This document shows, in pieces, positions 6,363 through 29,396 of a stretch of DNA of 30,664 bases (position 1 is its first letter; each line of letters starts with the position of its first letter). The notes under the pieces are model-generated. The model had not been told where the DNA came from. It did no database searches and was given only the letters and a program-made list of their open reading frames with translations. Position numbers and translations under genes: made by a program. This DNA is from a virus. Where the stretch lies: the IMG/VR virus record IMGVR_UViG_3300027747_000072, positions 1 to 30,664 of that record; one strand, written 5' to 3'.

Positions 6363-9300
6363 TTATCCAATAATTGAACCTTGAGCATAGCCTTGATTTA
6401 CCGTGTAAAGAAAAACAACAAGCCCAGAACCTCCGGTTCCTCCGGCTCCGCCAGCAATGCCGGAAAGGTATCCGCCTCCAGCACCACCTCCAGCACCATA
6501 CCCTCCAGTGCCTCCAGCGCCTCCGCTGGCTGATGATGTCGTTGCTCCACCAGCACCGCCACCGCCACCACCGCCAATTACTCCGCTTGAGCTTGTTCCA
6601 TTGATTAACGTGTAAACAAAGTCGGCGCTATTGTTTCCGTTTCCGCCAGCGCCGCCGCCATTGCTACCGTTGCCGCCACCGCCGCCACCAGCGCCCAGTC
6701 CGGTTCCAGCGCCGCCAGTGCCGCCAATACTACCGCCAGTGCCTCCAGTGCCTCCGCCAGTGCTACCAACACCATTGCCGCCGGTTCCTCCATTGATATT
6801 TGTAACGGCAGGAGCATTATTAGACGCACTTCCGTAACCGCCGCCACCGCCGCCACCGTAACTAAGACTAACATTGCTCGCTGGACTGCCGCCATACGAA
6901 TAAACAGAAGTAGAGTCATACCCAGAATTTAAAACACCAGCACCACCGCCACCAGCGCCAGTGAAACTGCTAGCGCCATAACAAACGCCGGAATAGCTTG
7001 TAGTTTGAGTAAATGCTCCTGTAAAAATACTTTGTGTTGCCCCAGAACCGCCAGCAGAATAAACAGCGCCATACCCGCCTTGTGCGGCAACGCCATTTGA
7101 GATTGAAGCGGGTTGTGCATTTGAACTAATATTTATCCAAGAAGTTCCTCCATTAACTCCAGCCGATCCGCCTGAGCCAACAGAATAATAAATTGCTTGA
7201 CCGGCAGACACACTGGGATTTGCAAGCACAATCAAAGCGCCGCCGCCGCCGCCAGCACCTTGAGCAGAACTATTACCGTTACTACCGCCACCACCACCAC
7301 CCAGAGCAACAAGGGCGCATGAGCCAGCAAATTGGCTTGGCACAGTAAAAGAACCGGAGCCGGATGTAAATGCTATTCCGTAGACAGCAGATGTAAACGT
7401 GATACCGCTGTTGTTTCCAAGATTGGCTATTCCGGATGCGGAAAGGGTTCCAGCTCCAGTTACATTAATTCCCCTGTATGAAACAAAACTTGTTTTGCAT
7501 GAGTTTGTCAAATTAATGGTTGAGGTTTTAACAAAACCATAATTTTGATCATATGTAGCAATACTCACAGGAGCAGTTTTTGTGCCGCTCATTTCAAAGC
7601 TAACTATATTAAATGTTTGCGGAGAATAATAATCCTTTCCAAGGGCCAATTGAAGGGGTGATGTTCCAACAAACAGCCATCGATTAAAAGATGATCCAGA
7701 TGAATTTGAAACTGTCATAAAACTACTAACCGAATCAAATTGAATTGTTCCGTACGTTGTAGTTCCAATATCTGATTTAAACGAGCTACTTATATAAAAC
7801 GTAGCGTTTGCCACAGACAATGTGCCTGAAGTCTGTGGATTCCAGCTATACGTTTGAAGATAGCTGGTTCCTGCATATAAAGATGCGGAGCTAATGACGG
7901 TAAAAAATGGGCCACCAGACCCCAAAGCAATGCCGCCAATTACAGTGTAATTATTGGTGTAAAAAGAACCACGATTAAGGTCTAATTCTTGAAGCGTTAA
8001 ATTTCCAGCAAGATTGTATGTTCCTCCAAATCCTTCGGTATATATATAAATATAAGGCAAATTAAGAGATGGAATCGTAATCGATGACCTTGCGTACAAA
8101 TGAACATAATAGTTTCCACCCAATGGAGTAAGGGCAGAAAAGGTTCCGGCGCTTGCTTGACCATAAATATTATAAGTAGCACTGCCACCTAGGTAATTAA
8201 AATATAAATTACTTATGGTTGGCGAAATTGTTACAGCAGAACCTAAATTTATATTATCAACATCAACTGAAGCGCCGCCAGTATTTGAATCAAAAATTAC
8301 CGTATCTTGAGGCAATGGAGCGGTTGCCCCCGTTGATCCACCTGATGTTGCAGACCACATTCCAGTACTTGAATAACTTCTTCCGCAAGCAAATAACAAA
8401 CCGGTAGTTGTCCCTGCCGTAGTTGATATGGCTGTGCCTCCATAGCTGGCTGAAAGGGTAAAGGTGGATGTTCCGTTTGTCAATATAACGTAATAAGCCG
8501 TAGTTGCTGGATAGCTTGGTATCTTTCCAGTGCCAGTCAAGGTTCCGGAAATATAAACAACTGCGCCCAAGGGAATGCCTGTAGTTGCCGTGCATGAAAA
8601 TGTTCCTGCCGCTCCCGTGATTGCGACAGAAGAAAGATTTAAAACAGCATATCGAGTAACCGCCGTAGTAAATGTTATTCCGGTGCAACCAAGCAAGTTT
8701 CCAACAGAGGTGAATGTAGCCGCTGTGCCAGATTGATTTAAAGTTATATCACCGCAGTCAACATTGGTAAATGTTTTTGCGCCTCCGGATAATGTTAAAA
8801 CTGCGGGAATGGATGTGTCGGATGTGTTGGAGATATTTGCATAACTTCCAACTCCAATTCTGTATGGATTTACATTTCCGCCAATTACTGAAAATGTACC
8901 TGTAACAGTTGTATTTGAAATCGATGCGCCTGAATAATATGTGGACGATCCGTTTAAAGATAAATTTGTACAAGTAAATGCGCTTTTGGATGTAATGCCT
9001 TGTCCGTAGGCGTTAACAGTGTAAAGTGTTTTTCCTTGAAAATCTAAATAAACACTAGTTGCTGGAGAGCTTGAAGACCCAGCCGCCACGCCAATATTAA
9101 TAATTGAAGATGAATTTACAGTTATGGTAGACGTTGGGTTAAATGTAATAGAGCTTGACCCGCCGTCTCCGGCTCCAGTTCTTCCAATATTCAATGTAGA
9201 GCCAGAGATATTTAGTGTTGCGCTAGAGTAGGTGTTTATATAATTGCTAGTGGTTGGGCTACCGATAGTATGTGTAAAAGCACCTGTGATTAAAGTTCCA

Positions 9301-9794
9301 TAAATTTGCAAAGCTGGCTCTAATACATTTATAGCCCCCGTAAGGGTAACCGTTTGCCCTCCAAAAACTTGAAAACTATCAAGAGTCATTGCTCCCAAGC
9401 TAAAAGCGCCAGACCCAGCAAAAGAAATAGAGCCCATAAAAGTGGTAGAAGCGCAAGCCCCTGATGCTGGCGAAGTGCCTTGCCAAAGCATTTGAAATTT
9501 TGTGCCAGAAGCTCCCACTGATGCGCTAGCAGGAAAAGTCCATGAGCCATATACAAAAACACCTGCACTGCAATCAAAATTTAATGTAGCTGGTATACCT
9601 GTTGCCGTTAAAGCAAGGCAAGATGCGCCGAAGGATACGGTAATTAGCCCCGATCCAGAAGATGCATTAAAAATAACATTGTCGGTAGAGGTTGGAACTC
9701 CTGCGCCGCCCGCTCCGCCAGAAGACAAAGACCAGCGTGATGCTGTGACAGTATCCCAGTCTCCTGTTCCGCCAACCCAGTAATATGTTGCCAT
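6363..9794 (-). CDS. Large adhesin with polyglycine tip, 1143 aa
   Basis: Probable receptor-binding protein. The N-terminus YYWVGGTGDWDTVTASRWSL, with DNVIFNASSG at about 39-48, recurs in diverged form near residues 470-500 (GMWSATSGG, then DTVIFDSNTGG), indicating an internal duplication. Residues ~50-800 are Ser/Thr/Gly beta repeats. From about residue 812 to the end it is a glycine-rich domain: FTVPSQFAGSCALVALGGGG, then many GGGGGG, GGTGG and GGAGG runs, closing with GSGLVVFLYTV. Such tips form polyglycine-II helix bundles in some phage adhesins (Salmonella phage S16 gp38). The middle of the gene looks clearly richer in A/T than its neighbours, suggesting acquisition by exchange. AAGGG precedes the ATG. 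Confidence 0.82.
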   Translation of the reverse strand: MATYYWVGGTGDWDTVTASRWSLSSGGAGGAGVPTSTDNVIFNASSGSGLITVSFGASCLALTATGIPATLNFDCSAGVFVYGSWTFPASASVGASGTKFQMLWQGTSPASGACASTTFMGSISFAGSGAFSLGAMTLDSFQVFGGQTVTLTGAINVLEPALQIYGTLITGAFTHTIGSPTTSNYINTYSSATLNISGSTLNIGRTGAGDGGSSSITFNPTSTITVNSSSIINIGVAAGSSSSPATSVYLDFQGKTLYTVNAYGQGITSKSAFTCTNLSLNGSSTYYSGASISNTTVTGTFSVIGGNVNPYRIGVGSYANISNTSDTSIPAVLTLSGGAKTFTNVDCGDITLNQSGTAATFTSVGNLLGCTGITFTTAVTRYAVLNLSSVAITGAAGTFSCTATTGIPLGAVVYISGTLTGTGKIPSYPATTAYYVILTNGTSTFTLSASYGGTAISTTAGTTTGLLFACGRSYSSTGMWSATSGGSTGATAPLPQDTVIFDSNTGGASVDVDNINLGSAVTISPTISNLYFNYLGGSATYNIYGQASAGTFSALTPLGGNYYVHLYARSSITIPSLNLPYIYIYTEGFGGTYNLAGNLTLQELDLNRGSFYTNNYTVIGGIALGSGGPFFTVISSASLYAGTSYLQTYSWNPQTSGTLSVANATFYISSSFKSDIGTTTYGTIQFDSVSSFMTVSNSSGSSFNRWLFVGTSPLQLALGKDYYSPQTFNIVSFEMSGTKTAPVSIATYDQNYGFVKTSTINLTNSCKTSFVSYRGINVTGAGTLSASGIANLGNNSGITFTSAVYGIAFTSGSGSFTVPSQFAGSCALVALGGGGGGSNGNSSAQGAGGGGGALIVLANPSVSAGQAIYYSVGSGGSAGVNGGTSWINISSNAQPASISNGVAAQGGYGAVYSAGGSGATQSIFTGAFTQTTSYSGVCYGASSFTGAGGGGAGVLNSGYDSTSVYSYGGSPASNVSLSYGGGGGGGYGSASNNAPAVTNINGGTGGNGVGSTGGGTGGTGGSIGGTGGAGTGLGAGGGGGGNGSNGGGAGGNGNNSADFVYTLINGTSSSGVIGGGGGGGAGGATTSSASGGAGGTGGYGAGGGAGGGYLSGIAGGAGGTGGSGLVVFLYTVNQGYAQGSIIG

Positions 9795-14057: not shown

Positions 14058-14762
14058 TTAATTAACTGGGTTACTTGCTTGACCGTTTCGGTATGCATCT
14101 CTTCGATCCATACCATCACCCAGACGCTTAAGTTGACCCAAAGCTTCGTCGTATCGTTTCTGATACTGGGCAATTACATCCGTTTCACCCTTCATAAAAG
14201 TATACGCTTCTAAGAGTGATCCGTACAGCAAAACAGTCTCGAAATTCTCTCCGAGCCATGATGTTCCAGTGGACGAAACGGTGATGGATTCTGGGTAGTA
14301 GTAATAGTGCAATTCAACCTTGTAGTCCGCATCTGGGCTTGGGCCAACGATCAACGAAAGATTGAAAGGTTTTTCAATTGGGGCGCTAGAGTCAGTTCCA
14401 AATATGGCGTAATACTGCGGCGTACCGCCGTACGCTGGGTCTGGATACGTCTCACGAATAAAACTTACATCCTTGTCCAGCAAAAAACTTTGCGGACTCA
14501 TAACGCCAAGAGACGGAGTTGTGAACACCGCCAAAGAATAAACAGCCAAAAAGTCGGGAGGCAAGCTTAAATAGTGCTTGCCAGAAGTCAGTGAACCCTC
14601 CACATTCTTTTTGAACTGAGGCATTTGCACCGTATTGTAGATGCGAATCTCTGCGTCTCTGATAAATGTGTTGACCTGCATGGTCGTGGTCATGCCTTGA
14701 GTCAACGGAAAAGAATTCTCCGTGTAACCCTTGATGGTGGTGACCAAGTCGGTATAGTTCAC
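14058..14762 (-). CDS. Second neck adaptor / head-tail connector protein, 234 aa
   Basis: Begins at a GTG codon (14762) with AAGGA nine bases upstream; no ATG is available at this position. The N-terminal half has MQVNTFIRDAEIRIYNTVQMP (residues ~28-48) and SGKHYLSLPPDFLAVYSLAV (~56-75), features of the phage adaptor family that lines the neck or tubular-A ring. Then come QYYAIFG, VGPSPDADYKVELHYYYYPE and, near the end, a helical LLYGSLLEAYTFMKGE with QYQKRYDEALGQL. It closely resembles adaptors of podovirus-like uncultured phages. It follows the gp4-like gene after three small genes. Confidence 0.78.
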   Translation of the reverse strand: MNYTDLVTTIKGYTENSFPLTQGMTTTMQVNTFIRDAEIRIYNTVQMPQFKKNVEGSLTSGKHYLSLPPDFLAVYSLAVFTTPSLGVMSPQSFLLDKDVSFIRETYPDPAYGGTPQYYAIFGTDSSAPIEKPFNLSLIVGPSPDADYKVELHYYYYPESITVSSTGTSWLGENFETVLLYGSLLEAYTFMKGETDVIAQYQKRYDEALGQLKRLGDGMDRRDAYRNGQASNPVN

Positions 14763-14772
14763 TGCCTATTCC

Positions 14773-15060
14773 TTAGCACATTGGCCCACGAGCCATTGTC
14801 CCCTTGGTTGCCGCACCTGTGCCACGAATTTTGATGCCGCTGGTTTTGGTGTTATCGGCGTTTGGATTACCCAAGCTTACTCGTCTTGCCGGTGTGGCAA
14901 CATTATTGCTGTCGGCAGACAAGGTATTGGGGTCAACCATCTTGTTGCGTGATTTTTCAAGTTGATTGACAGTCAGACCCTTGCCTTTCATGTCATGCGG
15001 CGGGGCGTATGTAGCGGCTTGACCCACTTCTTTGCCCATCATTTTTTTGCTAAATCCCAT
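14773..15060 (-). CDS. Small basic protein with KIRGTG tail, 95 aa
   Basis: The ATG at 15060 is preceded by GGAGGT, which decides it over an ATG four codons upstream. The sequence starts MGFSKKMMGKEVGQAATYAP, has a NQLEKSRNKMVDP stretch, and ends TSGIKIRGTGAATKGTMARG followed by PMC. This tail is a known-looking phage C-terminus and a looser relative of the motif in neighbouring genes. It is basic, probably disordered, with a single terminal cysteine. The function is unknown; its position between two neck adaptors points to a virion or assembly role. Confidence 0.72.
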   Translation of the reverse strand: MGFSKKMMGKEVGQAATYAPPHDMKGKGLTVNQLEKSRNKMVDPNTLSADSNNVATPARRVSLGNPNADNTKTSGIKIRGTGAATKGTMARGPMC

Positions 15061-15061
15061 A

Positions 15062-15250
15062 TCAACCTCCACGACCAGAACGCTTCTGGTTCATTGCACG
15101 AGCCATGTTTCTACCAACGGCCTTCATGGCCTTGCCGGTAACGCCTGCGCTTGTTTTACCGCCCTTCATTACAGGGACTTTGGGGCCGTCAATACCCATT
15201 TGTTTACCGACTGTTTTGCCTTTTTTGGCGATGCCGTCAAATTCAGCCAT
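15062..15250 (-). CDS. Small basic motif protein, 62 aa
   Basis: A short protein with a strong AAGGAG site. It opens MAEFDGIAKKGKTVGKQMG, an N-terminal copy of the shared DG-I-A-x-K-G-K-T motif, continues with VPVMKGGKTSAGVTGKAMK, and ends Arg/Gly-rich (RSGRGG). It has no acidic cluster, membrane segment or cysteine. The function is unknown; the charge suggests contact with nucleic acid. Its stop TGA lies next to the ATG of the next gene, so the two are probably translated together. Confidence 0.75.
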   Translation of the reverse strand: MAEFDGIAKKGKTVGKQMGIDGPKVPVMKGGKTSAGVTGKAMKAVGRNMARAMNQKRSGRGG

Positions 15251-15261
15251 GATGTTTCTCC

Positions 15262-15684
15262 TTATACCTGTACTGTAACGCTGTTTAAACTTGCCGTGGC
15301 AACCAAATCATTGGGGGTTAGCCCATTGTCATTTGCCCTAGCGCCACCAATCGGATTCCAGCCCCATTGGAAAACCCTACTACCGCCGTCTGGCCCGCCG
15401 CCACCAAGCGCCCCTGCCGCACCATCAAGCACCTGTAGACCGTTTAAACCTGATGCGTAGTAGCTCAAGTCTGGCCTTGGGTTGCGAATGCCCTGCGGAT
15501 CATTCACCGGGTACATACCCAACTGCAATTGAGGCTGATCTGGCTCCCAGCATTCTGGGCAAACCAAGATGTTTGTCAGCTTGGTTTTGATCGTCAGCTT
15601 CTTCAACTGCTTCAACATATACCTTTGACCACAGCGATCGCATTCCGCTATGGCATATTTGCCAGAAGCAAAACGATTAGGCAT
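15262..15684 (-). CDS. Zinc-ribbon neck-region protein, 140 aa
   Basis: Two CxxC knuckles, C15-x2-C18 and C42-x2-C45, are separated by a Lys-rich beta hairpin and should bind one zinc ion. GMYPVNDPQGIRNPRPDLSY follows at 56-75. The second half is Gly/Pro-rich (AAGALGGGGPDGG) with FQWGWNPIGG. The gene overlaps the adaptor gene by 8 bases and has GAGGA before its ATG. This zinc ribbon plus NPRPD pattern seems to travel with gp4-like adaptors in related phages. A structural part of the neck or tail is likely, not an enzyme. Two GTTTAAAC sites each code a Leu-Asn pair within it. Confidence 0.78.
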   Translation of the reverse strand: MPNRFASGKYAIAECDRCGQRYMLKQLKKLTIKTKLTNILVCPECWEPDQPQLQLGMYPVNDPQGIRNPRPDLSYYASGLNGLQVLDGAAGALGGGGPDGGSRVFQWGWNPIGGARANDNGLTPNDLVATASLNSVTVQV

Positions 15685-16600
15685 ACATCAAGTTCCTCGG
15701 GACGTACCTGTCTGGCGCTTTGTCTCGGTCTTCGGTCGAAGCAAGCGTCCATTGCTCTTCATATTCATTTTTCAAAAAGTCACGAACATTCATGGCTTGC
15801 GGAATTTTTTGGGAAAGGTAAAAGGCCAAGCCAGCCACCATGCATGGAATAAATCGAAAAGGAATGTCTTGATACACCTGACCGGACGCACCGGAGTCTT
15901 GGATGCGTCTCAGGCGGTAGTAAACAAACAAGTAAGGGCCACCACCGTCGCCGGTTGGATAGACGTTGATACTTGGCAAATTTTGAACGGTCATGCTTGC
16001 GCCGTCAGCGTGGGATGCGGCAGTAGTGCCATTTTGTCCACGGGCGCAATTAATCAACTGATCGCCATCCACAGACTGGTAATAAATGGTTTCGCTATCA
16101 ATCAACACAAAGCCATTGGTCGTCAGCTCAGAGATATTGTTTACCGTGATGGTGGTATCGGTTGCCGAAATTGCGCCGTTTAAAGTGGCTGTGGTGGCGT
16201 TGGATTGGCCTGACTGACGGTTGATCCACAACTGGATTGGACGACCTTGCGCCAACTTATTGGGAATCGTCATGTAAGTGGATTCGCTGATCCGACTGAT
16301 ATTGATGTCGGATTGCTGTGGAGTCCCGTTCCCGGTGCGGGTCACGGTATCCAAAAGATCAATTGTGTCCACGGGGATGGGGTAGCAAGCCTGTCCGGTG
16401 AGAATGGGGATAACGCCCTGCTCAATTGTCCACAAGTTAATCCCACGGTTTGCCCACTCAATGGTCATGATGTTCAGCGAACGCCGAGCTGTTCTCATGT
16501 CGTAGCCAGTTTTCATTTCCTGACCGCAACGCTCATACGCCTCTTCAACTAAATTGACGAGATCAAGATTGAATGAGGTTGTTCCGCTGGTGGTGGACAT
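15677..16600 (-). CDS. gp4-like / tail-tubular-A-like neck adaptor, 307 aa
   Basis: Adaptor that forms the ring below the portal in short-tailed phages. Residues 10-60 carry the family opening: LVEEAYERCGQEMKTGYDM, then RSLNIMTIEWANRGINLWTI. Residues ~100-130 hold RISESTYMTIPNK and GRPIQLWINRQ, and 222-240 hold FVYYRLRRIQDSG. The C-terminal third is helical (AGLAFYLSQKIPQA). Between INRQ and the second half lies a Thr-rich stretch (148-203) with LIDSETIYYQ and CARGQNGTTAASHADG. This reads as a separate beta module inserted into the adaptor and is matched by one in the 880-aa protein. The start overlaps the preceding stop (TAATG). Confidence 0.82.
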   Translation of the reverse strand: MSTTSGTTSFNLDLVNLVEEAYERCGQEMKTGYDMRTARRSLNIMTIEWANRGINLWTIEQGVIPILTGQACYPIPVDTIDLLDTVTRTGNGTPQQSDINISRISESTYMTIPNKLAQGRPIQLWINRQSGQSNATTATLNGAISATDTTITVNNISELTTNGFVLIDSETIYYQSVDGDQLINCARGQNGTTAASHADGASMTVQNLPSINVYPTGDGGGPYLFVYYRLRRIQDSGASGQVYQDIPFRFIPCMVAGLAFYLSQKIPQAMNVRDFLKNEYEEQWTLASTEDRDKAPDRYVPRNLMYA

Positions 16601-16845
16601 TATTTAGCCGCTCTCATGTTGTCAATCAAATTTGGATAGGGTCTGCCAGCGGCCTTTGCGGCGGCTTTAGCCTTTGCCTTTTTGGCGGGTGACAGCGTTT
16701 TGTGCTTCTTGGCAGGATTGGGCGTATTCCAAACTTCACCGCCCTCCTTGAATTGTTTAAACGCAGTGTCATCCCGGCGAGCTTTGCGCTTGGCTACCGG
16801 CATCTTAGAGGGGGCAATGTCCCCCATTCCTCGGCTGGACATCAT
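16600..16845 (-). CDS. Histone-tail-like small basic protein, 81 aa
   Basis: About one third of residues are Lys or Arg. After MMSSRGMGDIAPSKM, a basic AKRKARRDD patch, and FKEGGEVWNTPNPAKKHK comes a run SPAKKAKAKAAAKAAGR that resembles histone H1 or bacterial histone-like tails, then PYPNLIDNMRAAK. The last block is a pattern I recall from other phage proteins. A methionine doublet leaves two possible starts (16845 or 16842); the first gives an ATGA overlap with the upstream gene. The stop TAA overlaps the neck gene ATG. DNA binding is inferred from composition only. Confidence 0.75.
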   Translation of the reverse strand: MMSSRGMGDIAPSKMPVAKRKARRDDTAFKQFKEGGEVWNTPNPAKKHKTLSPAKKAKAKAAAKAAGRPYPNLIDNMRAAK

Positions 16846-18044
16846 TTCCGCCCTTTCATCATGCCGCCACCGGACATCTTAGAGATAGTGCCTTTGGTTT
16901 TGCCACGAATTGCAATGCCATCGCCTCGGCTGGAAGCTGAACTCACAGAGCCGCCTTTGGCAAACTTCTTGACTGCCCCGCCCTTTTTGTAGCCATACAT
17001 AGGGGACAGAGCTACATCACTCTCATAAGCATAGTCGCCCGGCTTGGCTTTACCTGCTCCCGGCCTTGCATTCATTACGGGGTCTTTAGCATCTTTTCTG
17101 GCTTGAGCGGCTTGTTTCCTAGCGGCGGCTTGAGCGGCTTTTGCTTCGGCGGCGGCGGCTCTGCCTTCCACTTCAGCAATTTTTTCCATGCCCTTTGGGC
17201 CAGCGGCCCAAGCATTTGGATTGCTTACAGCCGCATTGCGACCCGGGAACATCGTATTGCGAAGTTGCGACAAATCCTTTAAACGCTGTCCTGCGGCGCT
17301 CAAAATACCTTCTCCAGTCTCTCCAGCAAGTTTTAAGGCATTGCGACCACCCATGTTGGCTAAAGCCTTTGCGCCAGTTGCGATAGTTTTAATCCCAAAT
17401 GATGCGGGGTTGAGAATCATTTCTGGATGAGAACCTTCAAGAGCCTCAGATTCGGGAGTTCCTAGCCTAGCAGGCCGAGGAATTTCGTTAAATGGGGTTG
17501 ATGAAGAAATTTCTCCACGGCTTTTGGTTGCTTCAAGATCACGAGGATTTGAAACAGGGGGCTTGCCTGTTTTAAGCGCCTTGGCGACGTTATCGTTAAT
17601 ATCGTCTTGAAATGTTCTTTTTCGTGGGGCCAGTTGCGTGAACTCTTGTGCGGGAGGGCGCTTGCCGCTCAGCGCATCACGAACATCTTGGCGGGTGTCT
17701 TGATTAAACTCATTTGCCACCCTTTTTGCCTCAAGCATTTTCATGTGTGCATCGTCTATAGATAGCGCACTGCCCGGATTTAAATTTGGTGTATTTTTTT
17801 CTTGGAGCCGAGCATTGCGAGCGGCAAGCGGGCTAACGCTTTCTTCATCATTTGCAACCGCACGGCGCATTGCCGCAGTGTTTCTGGCAATAGTATCTCG
17901 ATCAATCGCCCCATTTCGAACGTAAACATTCTGTGCGCCTTCATCGCTATACGGAGATGAGTCATCCCCGGTGACGACTTCTCCTGCGTAATAACGCTTG
18001 ATTTTGCCGCCGCCTTTAAATTTCATTGGTTTTTTTGTAGCCAT
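16842..18044 (-). CDS. Ala/Lys-rich structural or internal protein, 400 aa
   Basis: The ATG at 18044 is chosen for the GAGGT site upstream; the longer frame to 18137 runs into the preceding gene. The N-terminus is basic (MKFKGGGKIKRYYAGE), the centre is polar and probably disordered, residues ~225-265 hold a glycine/alanine-rich helix region (FGIKTIATGAKALANMGG), and residues ~295-345 an Ala/Lys helix (EGRAAAAEAKAAQAAARK). The C-terminus has GYKKGGAVKKFAKGG followed by RGDGIAIRGKTKG, the best copy of the shared motif. Homologous tails occur in many uncultured phage proteins. The function is unknown; an internal virion or ejection protein is plausible from the helix-rich, low-complexity layout. 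Its stop overlaps the next start (ATGA). Confidence 0.75.
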   Translation of the reverse strand: MATKKPMKFKGGGKIKRYYAGEVVTGDDSSPYSDEGAQNVYVRNGAIDRDTIARNTAAMRRAVANDEESVSPLAARNARLQEKNTPNLNPGSALSIDDAHMKMLEAKRVANEFNQDTRQDVRDALSGKRPPAQEFTQLAPRKRTFQDDINDNVAKALKTGKPPVSNPRDLEATKSRGEISSSTPFNEIPRPARLGTPESEALEGSHPEMILNPASFGIKTIATGAKALANMGGRNALKLAGETGEGILSAAGQRLKDLSQLRNTMFPGRNAAVSNPNAWAAGPKGMEKIAEVEGRAAAAEAKAAQAAARKQAAQARKDAKDPVMNARPGAGKAKPGDYAYESDVALSPMYGYKKGGAVKKFAKGGSVSSASSRGDGIAIRGKTKGTISKMSGGGMMKGRK

Positions 18045-18051
18045 GACAACC

Positions 18052-18600
18052 TCACATCTTGATGTTTTTAGCTTTGGTGTGGCCTTTAAGCTGGATAGTG
18101 TGTTCGCCATGACCACGCTTGCCGCCGGAAGGAACACTGCCCATTGGGGTGGTAATCATGCCGCCCTTGGCGTACTTCATCATGCCGCCCTTTTTCATGC
18201 CGGGAGCCATGCCCATCATTTGCTTTTTGTCCAGAGCCATGTCTGCCTTAGAGCCTTCTTTCATGCCCTTCTTCTCAACATCTTTGCCGGACTTTTCAAA
18301 AGCCGCCATAGTCATTCCGCCTTTTTTAAGCTTCAACTTGGTTCCGGAATCGCCTTTATGCTCTTGCATATCGTGTTGTTTAAACGCTTTCTTAATCATG
18401 GCTTTATCTTGGGCCATGTCAGACTTATCGCCTTCCATTGTTTTCTTCATAGCAACACCACCTTCTTTAAATTTTTTACCTTTGCTGGCCTGACTAAAGT
18501 CTTCACCAACAGATTGAGGAACACCAACTTTTTTTGCAAATGCAGGGTTGTGAGCCACGGCATCCATGAATTTTTTTTGCTTAGGACTTGTTGCTGGCAT
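18052..18600 (-). CDS. Lys/Met/Gly-rich phage protein, 182 aa
   Basis: Start taken at the ATG at 18600; a GTG one codon earlier is also possible. The N-terminus SPKQKKFMDAVAHNPAFAKK, followed by GVPQSVGEDFSQASKGKKF, is a conserved phage head-of-protein pattern. The remainder is low complexity: a G-[DS]-K-[SA]-D-M-A-x-D-K block occurs twice (GDKSDMAQDK and GSKADMALDK), KKGGM occurs three times, and the end reads LKGHTKAKNIKM. It is highly basic and rich in methionine, with no membrane segment. The function is unknown. Together with its neighbours it forms a run of Lys/Gly-rich proteins that may be packaged with DNA or act in assembly. Confidence 0.75.
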   Translation of the reverse strand: MPATSPKQKKFMDAVAHNPAFAKKVGVPQSVGEDFSQASKGKKFKEGGVAMKKTMEGDKSDMAQDKAMIKKAFKQHDMQEHKGDSGTKLKLKKGGMTMAAFEKSGKDVEKKGMKEGSKADMALDKKQMMGMAPGMKKGGMMKYAKGGMITTPMGSVPSGGKRGHGEHTIQLKGHTKAKNIKM

Positions 18601-18839
18601 CACTTTTCCCCTTTGATAAGCTGGTCAATCTTTGCTTCAAGGCGGTTAAACCGTTGGTCAATGTGGTCAGTAAGTCTTGCAACTTCTGCTTTAGTAGCTG
18701 TATCACGAGCAATCTCCTCACGGGTTATGTTTAAAAGGCGCTCAAGGCGCTTTACATCCTCAAGCTTTTCACGAATGAAAAACCACAAACCACCCAAAAG
18801 GGCAGAAAGTCCAGCCGACCAAATTGTGTTGATGTCCAT
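18600..18839 (-). CDS. Small membrane-anchored coiled-coil protein, 79 aa
   Basis: The ATG at 18839 overlaps the stop of the previous gene (TAATG). Residues ~6-21 form one short hydrophobic segment (IWSAGLSALLGGLWFFI). The rest is a charged heptad coiled coil (VKRLERLLNITREEI, then VARLTDHIDQRFNRLEAKID). This one-TM plus coiled-coil layout resembles small phage membrane proteins sometimes annotated as holin-like or virion membrane proteins. It lies far from the recognised lysis genes, so a holin role is doubtful. Its stop overlaps the next start in TGATG, implying coupled translation. Confidence 0.75.
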   Translation of the reverse strand: MDINTIWSAGLSALLGGLWFFIREKLEDVKRLERLLNITREEIARDTATKAEVARLTDHIDQRFNRLEAKIDQLIKGEK

Positions 18840-19153
18840 TACACAAACCTGCCTTTTGTTTTGCCTTTGGTGGCGCAACCATCAGCCTTTGTTACATACC
18901 CGCCTTCAGCGCAATTCCATGCACGAAGGCTTTTGTTAATCCTCGAATCTGGATCGCTTGCGGTCTTGGAGCTTGTGAGCTTCTTCTTCATTCCCTCCAT
19001 GCGGGCGCAGAAAGAATCTCTGCGACTGCCGCCTTCCGGCTGAGGGCGCTTTAAATTCATCCCCTGAGCCTTGGCGGAAGCTCTCCCTTTGGCGTTTAAA
19101 CCGCCATTCGGATTCTTCCCTTCTGTTCTTTGCCATGCTGGAGTTTTAGCCAT
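18839..19153 (-). CDS. DUF6321-like small basic protein, 104 aa
   Basis: Very basic protein beginning AKTPAWQRTEGKNPNGGLN, with RRDSFCARMEGMKKKLTSSK at 44-63 and DPDSRINKSLRAWNC at 67-81, the pattern I know as DUF6321 in phages. It ends with DGCATKGKTKGRFV, one of the shared motifs in this window. The ATG at 19153 has GAAGG upstream and overlaps the glycosyltransferase end by 8 bases; its stop TAA overlaps the next ATG. Three cysteines (C49, C81, C93) are present but no clear zinc finger. The function is unknown; nucleic-acid contact or packaging into the virion would suit the charge. A GTTTAAAC palindrome codes its Leu-Asn pair at residues 19-20. Confidence 0.8.
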   Translation of the reverse strand: MAKTPAWQRTEGKNPNGGLNAKGRASAKAQGMNLKRPQPEGGSRRDSFCARMEGMKKKLTSSKTASDPDSRINKSLRAWNCAEGGYVTKADGCATKGKTKGRFV

Positions 19154-23304: not shown

Positions 23305-24222
23305 TTAGGAGCCGCCTTGTGAACCCCAAATTCCCAGAGGGTCAGACCAGCCGAAGCTGTAACGCTCACGGGACTTGTAGCGCACGTTACCGGTATCGAA
23401 GTCGCCGTCCATGCTGTTAGCCAGCGGAGTACGAACGAAATGCTTCAAGCCGTTAGGAACGTCAGTCAACAGATACCAAGAGTTGGAATCGGTGATGTAG
23501 TTGTTCACGGTGTAGCCTTCGGACACTGAGCCATTGTTCTTGATGGCGTTGACGTCATTATCGGTAGTGCCAACACGCAGTTCAGTATCCAACAGGCGGG
23601 TTGCAACGAATTGCAGGCCGGGAGGAACGATCAGCTTTTTGGGCTTGGCGGCAATCAACAAGTTACGCTCGTCTGTCCACTGTTGAATTTGAATGACAGC
23701 GGCTTCCAAAGAAGTCTCATTCAAGTCGGCGGCGGTAGATTGCGTATTGCTGTTTGTTGCACCAGAAACCAAAGGGTGCGCTGTTGAGAACAGAGGTACA
23801 CCATCGCCGCCATAGTAGGCGGAAGAGCTGGTGAAGCCGTTGTTCAAAATAGCGGCGGCTTTGACTTGCTTGGTGTAAGCCATTGCACGAGCCAGAGCTT
23901 TGGTATAGCGAGCAGACAAGCTGTCGTACAAGTTGTCTTCGATGGCCTCTTCGGTCAGCGAGAAACCCAAAGCAATGGTTTCGTGGTTGTAACGTGCTGT
24001 AAACGCCTCTTGAGCATTGTCATAAGCGATGGCTTGGCCTTCGTTCTTGACAGGAGCGGCAGAGAAGCCTGACAGCTTGGTTTCTTCTTCAAAAGAACGC
24101 TCAGAAGTTTCGATCTCGAACAGTTCTTTATGCTGTTCTCCGTAGAACGAATACTCCAAACCGAACAAAGCGTTCAATCCGGGGAGCAATTCTTTCAGTA
24201 GTTGGGCACGAGAAATAGCCAT
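23305..24222 (-). CDS. Major capsid protein
   Basis: 305-aa HK97-fold major head protein of the group resembling Mu-like gpT. The start MAISRAQLLKELLPGLNALF forms the N-terminal arm. HETIALGFSLTEEAIEDNLY near residue 80 matches the E-loop/spine-helix region, and GDGVPLFSTAHPLVSG, KKLIVPPGLQFVATRLL and YLLTDVPNGLKHF match the conserved P- and A-domain strands. The C-terminal RYSFGWSDPLGIWGS is typical of the group. There is no N-terminal delta domain or protease gene, which fits a separate scaffold. AAAGGAGC precedes the ATG. A strong intrinsic terminator follows 12 bases after the stop, consistent with a high-output gene. Confidence 0.92.
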   Translation of the reverse strand: MAISRAQLLKELLPGLNALFGLEYSFYGEQHKELFEIETSERSFEEETKLSGFSAAPVKNEGQAIAYDNAQEAFTARYNHETIALGFSLTEEAIEDNLYDSLSARYTKALARAMAYTKQVKAAAILNNGFTSSSAYYGGDGVPLFSTAHPLVSGATNSNTQSTAADLNETSLEAAVIQIQQWTDERNLLIAAKPKKLIVPPGLQFVATRLLDTELRVGTTDNDVNAIKNNGSVSEGYTVNNYITDSNSWYLLTDVPNGLKHFVRTPLANSMDGDFDTGNVRYKSRERYSFGWSDPLGIWGSQGGS

Positions 24223-26282: not shown

Positions 26283-26687
26283 TTATTTGCGTTTAATGCC
26301 ACGAGGGTCTTCCACAGTACCTTCAACTGAGTCGTCGTTGATGATGCGGAATTCTTTGCCGTGGATCACAAGCCGTGTACCAGCGTGTGGGCGAACAAGA
26401 ATGAAGTCACCTTCCTTGCACCAAGGGCCATTAGGGAAGCGTTTTTCATCTTTGTAGCAGTCGGGGCCTAGCCGAACCACAAACAGCACGGTGGTCAGCA
26501 ATTCCTCGTTATGCACTGTGAGTTCGGCCTTGATGATGCCGCTCTCATACTCTTTCTCCTGCTCTGGAATGGCGCAAAGAATGCGGTATCCGGAGGGAGT
26601 TGGGAGTTGTGTTGCCTTTCTTTCGTTGGTTTCGGGCTGTACCAGAGTCACTACTTCACCGGCGGTCGAACCGATTTCGTCAGTCAT
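26283..26687 (-). CDS. GroES-like co-chaperonin (Cpn10)
   Basis: 134-aa protein whose residues ~30-128 read as a Cpn10/GroES beta-barrel: GYRILCAIPEQ at the start of the fold, an ESGII stretch at the mobile-loop position that contacts GroEL, then VVRLGPDCY, EGDFILVRPHAGT and IHGKEFRIINDDSVEG. It carries an N-terminal extension of about 28 residues not present in bacterial GroES (about 97 aa). Phage co-chaperonins such as T4 gp31 replace host GroES so that GroEL can fold a large capsid protein; a similar role here is inference from the family and from its place just upstream of scaffold and capsid genes. No phage groEL is visible, so it would work with host GroEL. The start ATG lies inside the end of the 63-aa gene. 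Confidence 0.85.
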   Translation of the reverse strand: MTDEIGSTAGEVVTLVQPETNERKATQLPTPSGYRILCAIPEQEKEYESGIIKAELTVHNEELLTTVLFVVRLGPDCYKDEKRFPNGPWCKEGDFILVRPHAGTRLVIHGKEFRIINDDSVEGTVEDPRGIKRK

Positions 26688-26871
26688 TGAATTTCTCCAT
26701 TTTTTGCTTTTGGTCTAATACGAATTCACGGGCAGTCAGCAGACCTTGAATCTGACCACACGCTTTCTTGTACTCTGACAGGTCGTTTACGTTTCCTGTA
26801 GCTACAAAATCTCGCAACTGAAGAACTTTTTCGTCGATGTTCTTCATGATTACGTCAAAGTTATCCATCAT
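26680..26871 (-). CDS. Small conserved head-region protein, 63 aa
   Basis: A small, helical, charged protein that starts in a 4-base ATGA overlap with the portal gene and overlaps the downstream co-chaperonin gene by 8 bases. The sequence reads as one continuous amphipathic helix pair (LQLRDFVATGNV, then YKKACGQIQGLLTAREF). Proteins of this size and pattern sit between portal and scaffold in many uncultured short-tailed phages. The function is unknown; a head-assembly helper is plausible from position only. There are no signal peptide, membrane segment or metal-binding cysteines. Confidence 0.75.
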   Translation of the reverse strand: MMDNFDVIMKNIDEKVLQLRDFVATGNVNDLSEYKKACGQIQGLLTAREFVLDQKQKMEKFND

Positions 26872-29396
26872 TCACCTGTCGTCGGTTCTGTTGGCTGTTG
26901 CGCCTGAGCGGCGGCGGTTTTTGCATCATGCAGTTTAAACAACGTGTCTCTGTTTAAACGGTCTTTGGTTGAGGCCATATCGAAGCCCAATCGGTGACCG
27001 CTGAGATTTGCTTTGTCTTGTTCTGCCTGCTGTTTTTGGGCCAAACTTGCCTTGTCGTGGGCAATTTTGACTCCCAATTTGTGGCCTTCGAGGTTGCCTT
27101 GCATCTCCAATTTTGACTGTTCGACCTGCAATTGAGCCTGTTTGAGGGCTGTTTCTGCTTGATCTTTGGCTGATTTGCGCTGGATTTCTTGGCCTTTGAG
27201 TTGCAATTCCTGCATCTGCATTTGGATGATGGGGTCTTGCTGTTGCTGTTGAGCCTGCTGTTGAGCGGCATCTGCTTGGTTTTTCTGAAGCAACTGCTGG
27301 CTGGCTTGGGCGACCAAGCGAGAAATTTGCACTTCGTACTCTGGCGGCAGGGAGTTATCGTCGTCATCTGAGCCAAAGTATGGCAAGGGCGCACCAATCT
27401 GCTGTTCAATCTGCTGGCGATACTGGAACCCAAAATGCTCTGCAATGTGCGCTTGCAGGCCAGCCGTGATCTGCTGGGCATTTGGGCTTTGACCCACAAT
27501 AGCCGCCGTTTTGGGGTCTTGCAGGAAGTTCATGTGAGAGGCAATATGCGACTCATGATCCTGATAAATAAACGCCTTGAGCGGCTTGCTCATCATGGCA
27601 TTCATGTTTTCGGTCAGTGGGTCACGAGGCTTCTGGTCGTCTTCCAGCGGGATCAGTTTTTGGGCGTTACGAATACCCAAAACATCCAGCATCTGGCGAT
27701 GTAGCTGAGGCATATTGTAGATACCGGGCGCTCCCTGAGCCAACTGCAAAACAGCCTGATACTGAACAATCTTCTGCGCCATCGTGGCGGCATTAGGGTC
27801 GGAGACGGGGATTACCTCACAGCAGTCGTAGTCAGACTTCTTGGCTGAGCGGTCGCCTTCCTCTGGGTCATAGGAGTATTCTTCCGGCGTGTAGTCACGA
27901 ATGATGTCTCGCAACAATCCAAGCTCTTGTTTCATTGAGTAGTGGATGCGAGCCTGCACGGCGGACATGACCTTAAGGGTGCGTTCCAGCAAAGCAAGAG
28001 TTGAGCCCACCGGGGCGTTGGCAGACATATCAGCGACGTTTAAATCACCTGAGCCTGCGGCCCTACGCCCTTCTTCGACAATGTTTTCCAGCAACATCAT
28101 CAAAACTTGGCTTGGCTCTTTGTACGGCAAAGGCAACAAGTTGTCTTTTAATGTGCCGGATGCAATGTCTGCATCTCGCCACTCTCCGGGTGATATTGGG
28201 GTGTCATCGCCCTTGACTCTCATCCCCTTGGTTTTAAATCCGCCGGGTAGGTTGCTCAATGTGCCAGCGTCAACCAATTGGCGAATCAGTGATGTACCTG
28301 ACTTGGCAAATGCGCCGATCAGATGGATCAGGCCGAAGTAGTAGAAGCCAAATCCGGGGACGTAGCCATAGTGGACGAAGTGGTCACGTTTTTGTTCTGT
28401 TTCATCTTCTGGCCTCCAGTTGCGTCGCACAGCCAGCACAGTCTGGGTTTCTTTGTCCATTGTGACGACGTAGGGGAGTGCAATGCCAGTTGGCTCTCCG
28501 TTTTCGTCGCAGTCTTCAAATCCGGGGATGTCGAGGTCAATGTGACTTTCATAGATTTTGTACCTGTCATCTGTGGTCGCTTTGAAACCCATCTTCTCGG
28601 CAATCTTTTTCTCTACCTCATCAAGATTGTTTCGTGGCTCGCCAAGCTCCTCGTCGGCGTAGAAACCCTGATGGATCAGGCGAGCAAGCTCGTTTTTTGT
28701 CTTACGCATCACATGAGTGACACGGGGGGAGGTTTGGAGGGAGGATGCGCCGTAGGGGACGATGATGTCTTCGGCGGGAACAAAGATGGATGTCTGACGA
28801 TTTAAGGCTGGATCAAAATAAACCTTCTTGAATGCATTTCCGGAAAGGCCCAATCCCCAAATCATTCGCTCATGCTCCGGACGGTACTCTGTCATTACAT
28901 CCGTTAGCTGGTAATTCATGTCGTCTTGAACACGAGTTGAGGCTTCTTTTTTGTCTGGCGTTTCTTTGCCAATGATCTGGGTTTTGACTGGCCCAGCGGC
29001 AGGAAATGTTGCCATGATGGTTTCTGCTTGAAACTTGACCAGCGCCTCTGAAAGCAAAGGGTGGTAAACGCCGCAAGCGCCTTCCCAAGGCTCTGATCGC
29101 TCTTCAATCTTCATGCCTAAAAGTTCAAGACCGTCTACATAGGTTTGCATCCAATCTTTGCGTGAGGCTATGTCATCATCAATGTCGCTCGCCAAATCCG
29201 ACGCAATAGTTGAAAGCTCTTTGGGGCTGATGTAGTCAACAAGGTTGGCATCAAAAGGAATGTCTGGTTGCTCCGGCATATCCTCCACGGAAGCATCCTC
29301 GTCCTCACTGATAATTTCAATTTCAATGGTTGGGCCATCTTCCTCTTCGAGGGAGCCAAGTCCTGCTGGCGCTTGGGATAAACTTTTTTCAATCAT
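26868..29396 (-). CDS. Portal protein
   Basis: 842-aa portal, the dodecameric ring at one capsid vertex through which DNA enters and leaves. The N-terminal ~50 residues are acidic. The following body has portal-like segments such as EPWEGACGVYHPLL near residue 100 and LGLSGNAFKKVYFDP near 185. The last ~150 residues are very Gln/Ala/Lys-rich and helical, matching the long C-terminal barrel of P22-like portals. Within this tail a GHxLG heptad-like element occurs twice (GHKLGVKIA and GHRLGFDMA). The gene follows the terminase directly, and its stop overlaps the next ATG by 4 bases (ATGA). The long Q-rich tail makes it bigger than many portals but normal for the P22-like group. Identification rests on position, length and recognised sequence. 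Confidence 0.9.
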   Translation of the reverse strand: MIEKSLSQAPAGLGSLEEEDGPTIEIEIISEDEDASVEDMPEQPDIPFDANLVDYISPKELSTIASDLASDIDDDIASRKDWMQTYVDGLELLGMKIEERSEPWEGACGVYHPLLSEALVKFQAETIMATFPAAGPVKTQIIGKETPDKKEASTRVQDDMNYQLTDVMTEYRPEHERMIWGLGLSGNAFKKVYFDPALNRQTSIFVPAEDIIVPYGASSLQTSPRVTHVMRKTKNELARLIHQGFYADEELGEPRNNLDEVEKKIAEKMGFKATTDDRYKIYESHIDLDIPGFEDCDENGEPTGIALPYVVTMDKETQTVLAVRRNWRPEDETEQKRDHFVHYGYVPGFGFYYFGLIHLIGAFAKSGTSLIRQLVDAGTLSNLPGGFKTKGMRVKGDDTPISPGEWRDADIASGTLKDNLLPLPYKEPSQVLMMLLENIVEEGRRAAGSGDLNVADMSANAPVGSTLALLERTLKVMSAVQARIHYSMKQELGLLRDIIRDYTPEEYSYDPEEGDRSAKKSDYDCCEVIPVSDPNAATMAQKIVQYQAVLQLAQGAPGIYNMPQLHRQMLDVLGIRNAQKLIPLEDDQKPRDPLTENMNAMMSKPLKAFIYQDHESHIASHMNFLQDPKTAAIVGQSPNAQQITAGLQAHIAEHFGFQYRQQIEQQIGAPLPYFGSDDDDNSLPPEYEVQISRLVAQASQQLLQKNQADAAQQQAQQQQQDPIIQMQMQELQLKGQEIQRKSAKDQAETALKQAQLQVEQSKLEMQGNLEGHKLGVKIAHDKASLAQKQQAEQDKANLSGHRLGFDMASTKDRLNRDTLFKLHDAKTAAAQAQQPTEPTTGE

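What the first reader, a model, noticed from the sequence alone, without database searches (positions are those of the whole stretch)
14800..18883. Family of small basic proteins sharing a DG-[IC]-A-x-[RK]-G-K-T-x-G motif
The same short motif ends the 400-aa protein (16890-16922) and the DUF6321-like protein (18851-18883), opens the 62-aa protein (15206-15238), and has looser relatives at the ends of the 95-aa protein (14800-14838) and the 182-aa protein (18055-18087). A second motif, KKGG-x-x-K-x-x-AKGG, links the 400-aa and 182-aa proteins. Different proteins sharing one short tag at either end suggests a docking signal: a packaging tag, a binding site for one partner, or a DNA-contact peptide. 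I know of no described function.
Basis: partly seen in the sequence, partly recalled or inferred. Interest (0 to 1): 0.62.

Follow-up and report, generated by a model that had tools for sequence, protein, structure and literature searches.

The report
Shared C-terminal tag on phage proteins
A large group of uncultured aquatic phages puts the same short, near-invariant peptide tag on the tail end of many otherwise unrelated small proteins encoded beside the capsid and portal-adaptor genes, most likely so that one common partner in the virus particle can pick them all up; the tag is in no family library searched here and its function is untested.

Summary
DG[IC]A-x-[RK]-GKT-x-G occurs three times in the window at the stated coordinates against 0.00 expected. 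The copies lie on dozens of unrelated, mostly disordered proteins. One orthologous protein (DUF6321) occurs with the tag (about 28 loci) and without it (101), with a sharp junction and at least 5-9 gains or losses. Codons vary, so selection acts on the peptide. Tagged genes lie in one block between the major capsid and portal-adaptor genes: all 66 complete blocks hold 1-7. No Pfam, PHROG or PADLOC model covers the tag, and no paper in the library describes it. The 'docking signal' idea is the best-supported class of explanation. My best mechanism is a tag that brings a fast-changing set of late proteins to the capsid interior or portal vertex during assembly, working like T4 capsid-targeting sequences or encapsulin cargo peptides without being either. 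The partner and the presence of these proteins in virions are inferred. A deposited phage genome, Pag-Yong1, carries a variant and would allow a direct test.

The parts
18839..19153 (-). DUF6321 protein (104 aa) with the tag appended directly after its terminal WNC; tag core DGCATKGKTKG at 18851-18883, end ...GRFV
   Evidence: Pfam PF19846; alignment A2 shows untagged orthologues ending at W-x-C
18600..18839 (-). p92-type small protein, untagged, conserved neighbour
18052..18600 (-). 182-aa protein: N-terminal SKKQ-type module found in jumbo phages; C-terminal degenerate tag GEHTIQLKGHTKAKNIKM (about 18055-18108)
   Evidence: PHROGs 16759, 22033 and 25121 on the N-terminus; jumbo-phage matches; orthologues with intact tag
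16842..18044 (-). 400-aa basic protein without known domain; KKGG linker and tag core DGIAIRGKTKG at 16890-16922, then TISKMSGGGMMKGRK
   Evidence: no Pfam or PHROG match
16600..16845 (-). p81, conserved untagged gene that closes the tagged block, directly upstream of the adaptor gene
   Evidence: phrog_34011; gene order
15677..16600 (-). portal-adaptor protein (307 aa), anchor of the block
   Evidence: homologue of adaptors of DSL-LC04, CRP-901 and Pag-Yong1; weak SU10_adaptor match
15262..15684 (-). p140, cysteine-rich (zinc-ribbon-like by sequence) conserved neighbour
15062..15250 (-). 62-aa protein: tag at the N-terminus (15206-15238) and a second motif GRNMARAMNQK at the C-terminus (15083-15115)
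   Evidence: 51 ORFs have the same TAG-GRN build
14773..15060 (-). 95-aa protein ending GIKIRGTGAATKGTMARGPMC (14776-14838), a separate conserved C-terminal motif resembling the tag
   Evidence: 75 of 126 orthologues carry RGxGAATKG
14058..14762 (-). SU10-type adaptor (234 aa), context
   Evidence: PF24175, E 5.4e-24
23305..24222 (-). major capsid protein, other anchor of the block, context
   Evidence: PF25209 Phage_capsid_4 and Mu gpT; 68% identical to Pag-Yong1 MCP
26868..29396 (-). portal protein, context
   Evidence: named from gene order as in DSL-LC04; no Pfam match

Best explanation
The motif is a modular, mostly C-terminal docking tag. SHOWN: it is an independent peptide module carried by many unrelated proteins, gained and lost on the same protein, selected as peptide, and restricted to the late structural block of one phage lineage. 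INFERRED: the flexible Gly/Lys/Ser linker holds the tag out so that one common virion-assembly partner (inner face of the major capsid protein, scaffold, portal or portal adaptor) captures it. This would recruit 1-7 tagged proteins per phage into the procapsid or portal vertex, as internal or ejected cargo or as assembly accessories. The body is then free to change quickly while the tag stays fixed. The 62-aa protein (tag at one end, a second motif at the other) would bridge two partners.
For: 142 of 224 closed copies lie exactly 3 aa from the stop. Tagged proteins fall into 87 body clusters by BLASTP, and nearly all of 145 scanned carriers match no Pfam, PHROG or PADLOC model beyond DUF6321 (4), SKKQ (1) and single weak hits. 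DUF6321 orthologues: 101 end at WxC, about 28 carry the tag; at least 5 changes on its own tree and 9 on the MCP tree. The tag is the only region under pLDDT 50 in the DUF6321 model (residues 83-104). All 66 complete MCP-to-adaptor blocks hold 1-7 tagged genes, with C-terminal-type tags outside only in the nearby 62-aa gene. In 20 larger records the hits (17 records) fall in one region each and the reversed pattern gives none. Same-residue codons match at 0.47 against 0.38 from codon usage and exact DNA runs have median 8 nt, so it is not a DNA repeat. It is fused to a module that jumbo phages carry on annotated virion structural proteins.
Against: No tagged protein has been shown to be in a virion. 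No partner is identified, and complexes could not be modelled here. Tag residues are only slightly more alike within a genome than between genomes (0.727 against 0.691) and phylogeny could explain that. The N-terminal copy (62-aa protein) and copies 10-45 aa from the end show that a free C-terminus is not required. No body resembles a known anti-defence or defence protein. Tagless relatives with 54-64% identical MCPs exist, so this type of shell does not require the tag.
Confidence: 0.5

Rival explanations
1. Nucleic-acid contact peptide: the basic, glycine-rich tag binds phosphates of the packaged DNA and the tagged proteins are condensing or histone-like virion or late proteins.
For: Tag net charge about +6 and bodies mildly basic, median +4 per 100 aa; Lys/Gly-rich linker; the GKT core looks like a phosphate-binding loop.
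Against: Plain electrostatics would not keep D, G, [IC], A, G, T and G near-invariant while neighbouring bodies diverge, nor hold the tag 3 aa from the end. Many bodies are acidic-basic mixtures of low net charge.
Confidence: 0.2
2. Assembly-accessory code: tag and other short motifs (GRNMAR, RGxGAATKG, SKKQ) hold together a neck or portal-vertex complex; the proteins are structural glue and are not delivered cargo.
For: The block abuts the portal-adaptor gene in the long loci. Short motifs are combined in pairs, SKKQ-TAG 74, TAG-GRN 51 and DUF-TAG 27 ORFs.
Against: A structural ring would be expected to conserve protein bodies and copy number, but the number of tagged genes varies from 1 to 7 and bodies are unrelated.
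Confidence: 0.15
3. Turnover or chaperone signal: the C-terminal tag is a degron or chaperone tag that controls disordered late proteins.
For: C-terminal, short, on proteins that look disordered; several basic tails end in hydrophobic residues, as some ClpX signals do (general knowledge).
Against: N-terminal in the 62-aa family and 10-45 aa internal in the SKKQ family; confined to the structural block; the last residues vary (GRFV, GKMC, TRA).
Confidence: 0.08
4. DNA-level element (recombination or packaging sequence) that happens to be translated.
For: Repeated at gene ends in a region of rapid gene exchange.
Against: Codon identity at shared residues is little above codon-usage expectation, DNA identity 0.66 over 45 nt, median exact run 8 nt; always in the frame of the gene and near protein ends.
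Confidence: 0.02

Closest known systems
T4 capsid-targeting sequence (CTS) on internal proteins and Alt (PMC5694885 and references in it)
   Same: One short tag on several late proteins; in T4 it ensures that they are incorporated into the prohead.
   Different: CTS is N-terminal, 10-20 residues and removed by the prohead protease; this tag is mostly C-terminal, of different sequence, with no sign of cleavage. Prohead targeting here is inferred.
Encapsulin cargo-loading peptides (reviewed in PMC7355545)
   Same: Short peptide behind a flexible linker at the C-terminus of unrelated cargo; docks inside an HK97-fold shell (general knowledge of the family).
   Different: Different sequence, phage block rather than encapsulin operon, docking on the shell untested.
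DUF6321 (PF19846), common in cyanophages and pelagiphages
   Same: One carrier of the tag in the window is a true member (63.5 bits against cut-off 28.5).
   Different: DUF6321 ends before the tag; most members, including those of the cultured phages listed, have no tag.
Proposed 'Dishuiviridae' phage DSL-LC04, HTVC023P-type pelagiphages and Planktothrix phage Pag-Yong1
   Same: Same structural gene order and homologous MCP (61-68%) and adaptor.
   Different: Only Pag-Yong1 and its 65,014-bp twin MinM2 were seen to have the tag (DGCAKRGRTKGRFI); HTVC023P and 023Pt_psg01 have other Gly/Arg C-terminal motifs.

Membership tests
T4-type capsid-targeting sequence | N-terminal position | tested here: not met
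   328 of 581 tag ORFs at most 8 aa and 200 more within 45 aa of the C-terminus; 49 N-terminal
T4-type capsid-targeting sequence | Removed by a prohead protease | not testable with these tools
   No protease family appeared among the ten structural proteins scanned; cleavage needs protein data
T4-type capsid-targeting sequence | Shared by a variable set of small proteins at a fixed locus | tested here: met
   1-7 tagged genes with unrelated bodies in every complete block
T4-type capsid-targeting sequence | Directs proteins into the prohead | not testable with these tools
   needs virion proteomics or an incorporation assay
Encapsulin cargo-loading peptide | C-terminal, on unrelated cargo, behind a flexible linker | tested here: met
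Encapsulin cargo-loading peptide | Binds the inside of an HK97-fold shell | not testable with these tools
   MCP is a Phage_capsid_4/gpT type; binding not tested
P-loop (Walker A) NTPase | [AG]-x4-G-K-[ST] signature | tested here: met
   GxAx[RK]GKT fits the signature
P-loop (Walker A) NTPase | NTPase domain around it and essential Lys | tested here: not met
   The protein ends after the motif and no P-loop family matched in 145 carriers; Lys is replaced by Arg or His in several copies
DUF6321 | Pfam model above its cut-off | tested here: met
   63.5 bits against 28.5 for the window protein; 4 of 145 tagged carriers

The most novel reading that the evidence does not exclude
A C-terminal capsid-loading code in an uncultured phage lineage: every phage carries a private, fast-changing set of tagged proteins that are loaded into the head by one receptor site and delivered with the DNA, so that new cargo can be recruited simply by acquiring the roughly 20-residue tag.
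Probability: 0.25. Interest if true: 0.82.

Novelty: new variant of a known kind. Interest (0 to 1): 0.64.

Why it matters
A near-invariant tag on hundreds of otherwise unannotatable proteins gives a handle on phage 'dark matter': it predicts which unknown genes act together and where. If it loads virions, it gives a protein-targeting signal for phage heads and a way to find ejected host-takeover proteins by a simple sequence rule. The gain and loss of the tag on DUF6321 shows how such a signal spreads between genes.

Tried and rejected
P-loop NTPase: signature fits but the protein ends there and Lys is not kept. DNA repeat or packaging site: rejected by codon variation. Composition artefact: rejected by shuffles and by 15 other structural gene families without the motif. 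Cellular motif: 36 stretches in 257 Gb of bacterial and archaeal genomes, close to my rough chance estimate of about 22; only four (L122, L131, L145, L150) are real phage-type loci and a fifth (L152) looks like an assembly chimera. Paralogue family: 87 body clusters argue against a single family. Known-function bodies: PADLOC none, Pfam only DUF6321 plus two weak single hits. Fold of DUF6321: model too poor (pLDDT 61, pTM 0.37) to use; the significant matches of the viral search were other DUF6321 or unnamed proteins, one annotated 'virion protein'. Direct tblastn of the tag, the 62-aa protein and p81 in phage records found nothing. Solved structures: no sequence match for adaptor, portal or DUF6321. 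Papers: no biological hit for the peptide RGKTRG, none for DUF6321. An early co-variation test was mis-registered because a subtype ends GKTRA; redone.

Full report
WHAT THE WINDOW IS. The 30,664-base window is a viral record on its own, with the late genes on the - strand: large terminase, portal, a GroES-like protein, scaffold, major capsid protein, DUF6321, then the block in question, a portal adaptor, an SU10-type adaptor and tail genes (portal and scaffold named by gene order). It has no near match among 50,697 phage records. Its capsid protein is 68% identical to that of Planktothrix phage Pag-Yong1 and 61-64% to DSL-LC04 and HTVC023P.

OBSERVATION. The exact motif occurs three times in the window, at the coordinates given, with none in shuffles, and never in 20,000 residue shuffles of each protein. 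The 182-aa protein carries a worn copy, shown by orthologues with KGHTKGKMVKM or KGKTKGKMIKM at the same place. The 95-aa protein has its own conserved ending, RGxGAATKGxxARGPMA, similar but not shown to be the same. The second motif is off by one residue between the two proteins.

HOW COMMON AND WHERE IN THE PROTEIN. In those loci 225 copies were found; of 224 with a closed end, 142 lie exactly 3 residues from the C-terminus with consensus GG-x-x-S-SAS-[KR]-RADG[IC]A-x-[RK]-GKT-[RK]-G-[KR]-[MIF]-[VCI]-stop. With the later loci added, 581 ORFs carry a loose form: 328 within 8 residues of the end, 200 within 45, 49 at the N-terminus (mostly the 62-aa family), 4 internal. A frequent subtype ends GKTRA (49 proteins). 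In bacterial and archaeal genomes the pattern is near chance (36 stretches in 257 Gb; the expectation of about 22 is my own estimate from the information in the pattern), and only four of those loci are clearly of this phage type.

A TAG, NOT A FAMILY. With the tag removed the bodies fall into 87 clusters. In an alignment of 145 C-terminally tagged proteins the bodies share almost nothing (mean column identity 7%), while one G of the linker and D, G, G, K, T and G of the tag are invariant. Pfam, PHROGs and PADLOC recognise only DUF6321 (4 of 145), the SKKQ module (1) and a few weak single hits. The best case is DUF6321: 101 orthologues end at W-x-C and about 28 continue with a GG linker and the tag. 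The state changes at least 5 times on the domain tree and 9 times on the capsid-protein tree. In the AlphaFold2 model the tag is the only stretch under pLDDT 50 (residues 83-104), though the model as a whole is poor.

PEPTIDE, NOT DNA. At shared residues the codons agree in 47% of within-genome comparisons against 38% expected from codon usage, and the longest exact DNA run has a median of 8 nt.

GENE NEIGHBOURHOOD. The order portal - GroES-like - scaffold - MCP - DUF6321 - variable tagged genes and the SKKQ protein - p81 - adaptor - p140 - 62-aa protein - 95-aa protein - SU10-type adaptor is largely kept in the long loci, with losses of single genes. All 66 loci that span MCP to adaptor hold 1-7 tagged genes (commonly 3), and such tags outside lie only in the 62-aa gene nearby. 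In 20 larger records (32-65 kb) the pattern was found in 17, in one region each, with no hit for the reversed pattern. None of 15 other structural gene families carries the motif.

OTHER SHORT MODULES. The SKKQ protein's N-terminus (MPSTSKKQHNFMAAVA...GVPQSVGKDF) is found in 115 phage records, mostly jumbo phages including phiKZ, PhiPA3, EL, 121Q and GAP32, in several annotated as virion structural protein. The 62-aa protein is little more than the tag at one end and GRNMARxxNQK at the other; GRN ends other small proteins too. Short modules are combined as SKKQ-TAG (74 ORFs), TAG-GRN (51) and DUF6321-TAG (27).

MECHANISM. What is shown is a modular peptide that behaves as if recognised by something common to these phages and present when late genes are made. 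The inferred step is that the partner belongs to the capsid or portal vertex. That rests on gene position, on the virion annotation of proteins with the SKKQ module, and on the logic of one tag on many fast-changing bodies, which is how T4 loads its internal proteins (N-terminal CTS, PMC5694885) and how encapsulins load cargo (PMC7355545). It fails the CTS test of position, and its sequence is unlike both, so I do not file it as either. A DNA-contact peptide is the main rival.

LIMITS. Every carrier of the exact tag seen here is uncultured; the Pag-Yong1/MinM2 variant is the only one found in deposited phage genomes, and its host assignment is itself doubtful. The number of IMG/VR carriers is a lower bound because scans hit their limit. 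The loci are related, so counts are not independent. Within-genome tag similarity is only slightly above shuffles (0.727 against 0.691) and is weak evidence for a shared partner. The paper library holds open-licence papers only, so an earlier description elsewhere cannot be excluded.

Noticed in passing
L242 7782-8708 and L249 2274-3200: Three deposited phages from different cyanobacterial cultures (Pag-Yong1, Pra-JY27, MinM2) have the same length, 65,014 bp, and match the window's capsid protein equally; possibly one phage of a bacterium that lives with the cyanobacteria.
   Followed up: partly
L152:162-2003: A bacterial acyltransferase ORF at a contig edge (Patulibacter MAG) runs straight into a perfect phage tag; most likely an assembly chimera.
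   Followed up: yes
window 18465-18600 and PHIKZ165.1 (L237:8001-8177): The N-terminal SKKQ module (about 43 aa) is up to 86% identical between a relative of the window's lineage and phiKZ-type jumbo phages, and begins annotated virion structural proteins of 121Q, GAP32 and CBB type phages; its function is undescribed here.
   Followed up: partly
window 14776-14838: RGxGAATKGxxARGPMA is a second, separately conserved C-terminal motif, present in 75 of 126 orthologues of the 95-aa protein.
   Followed up: partly
window 15083-15115: GRNMARxxNQK is a third short motif, within 15 aa of the C-terminus in 84 of 88 ORFs that have it.
   Followed up: partly
L239:7960-8343 and L247:1847-2041: Related pelagiphage-type genomes end small proteins with other Gly/Arg tails (RGGGAAVRGMGFKGVF, RGCGKVMSNRRKKTKIA); there may be a wider class of such tags.
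   Followed up: no
window 26283-26687: A GroES-like (Cpn10) gene lies between portal and scaffold and is kept across the lineage.
   Followed up: no
window 6363-9794: A 1143-aa protein with a long glycine-rich C-terminal part, probably a tail or fibre protein.
   Followed up: no
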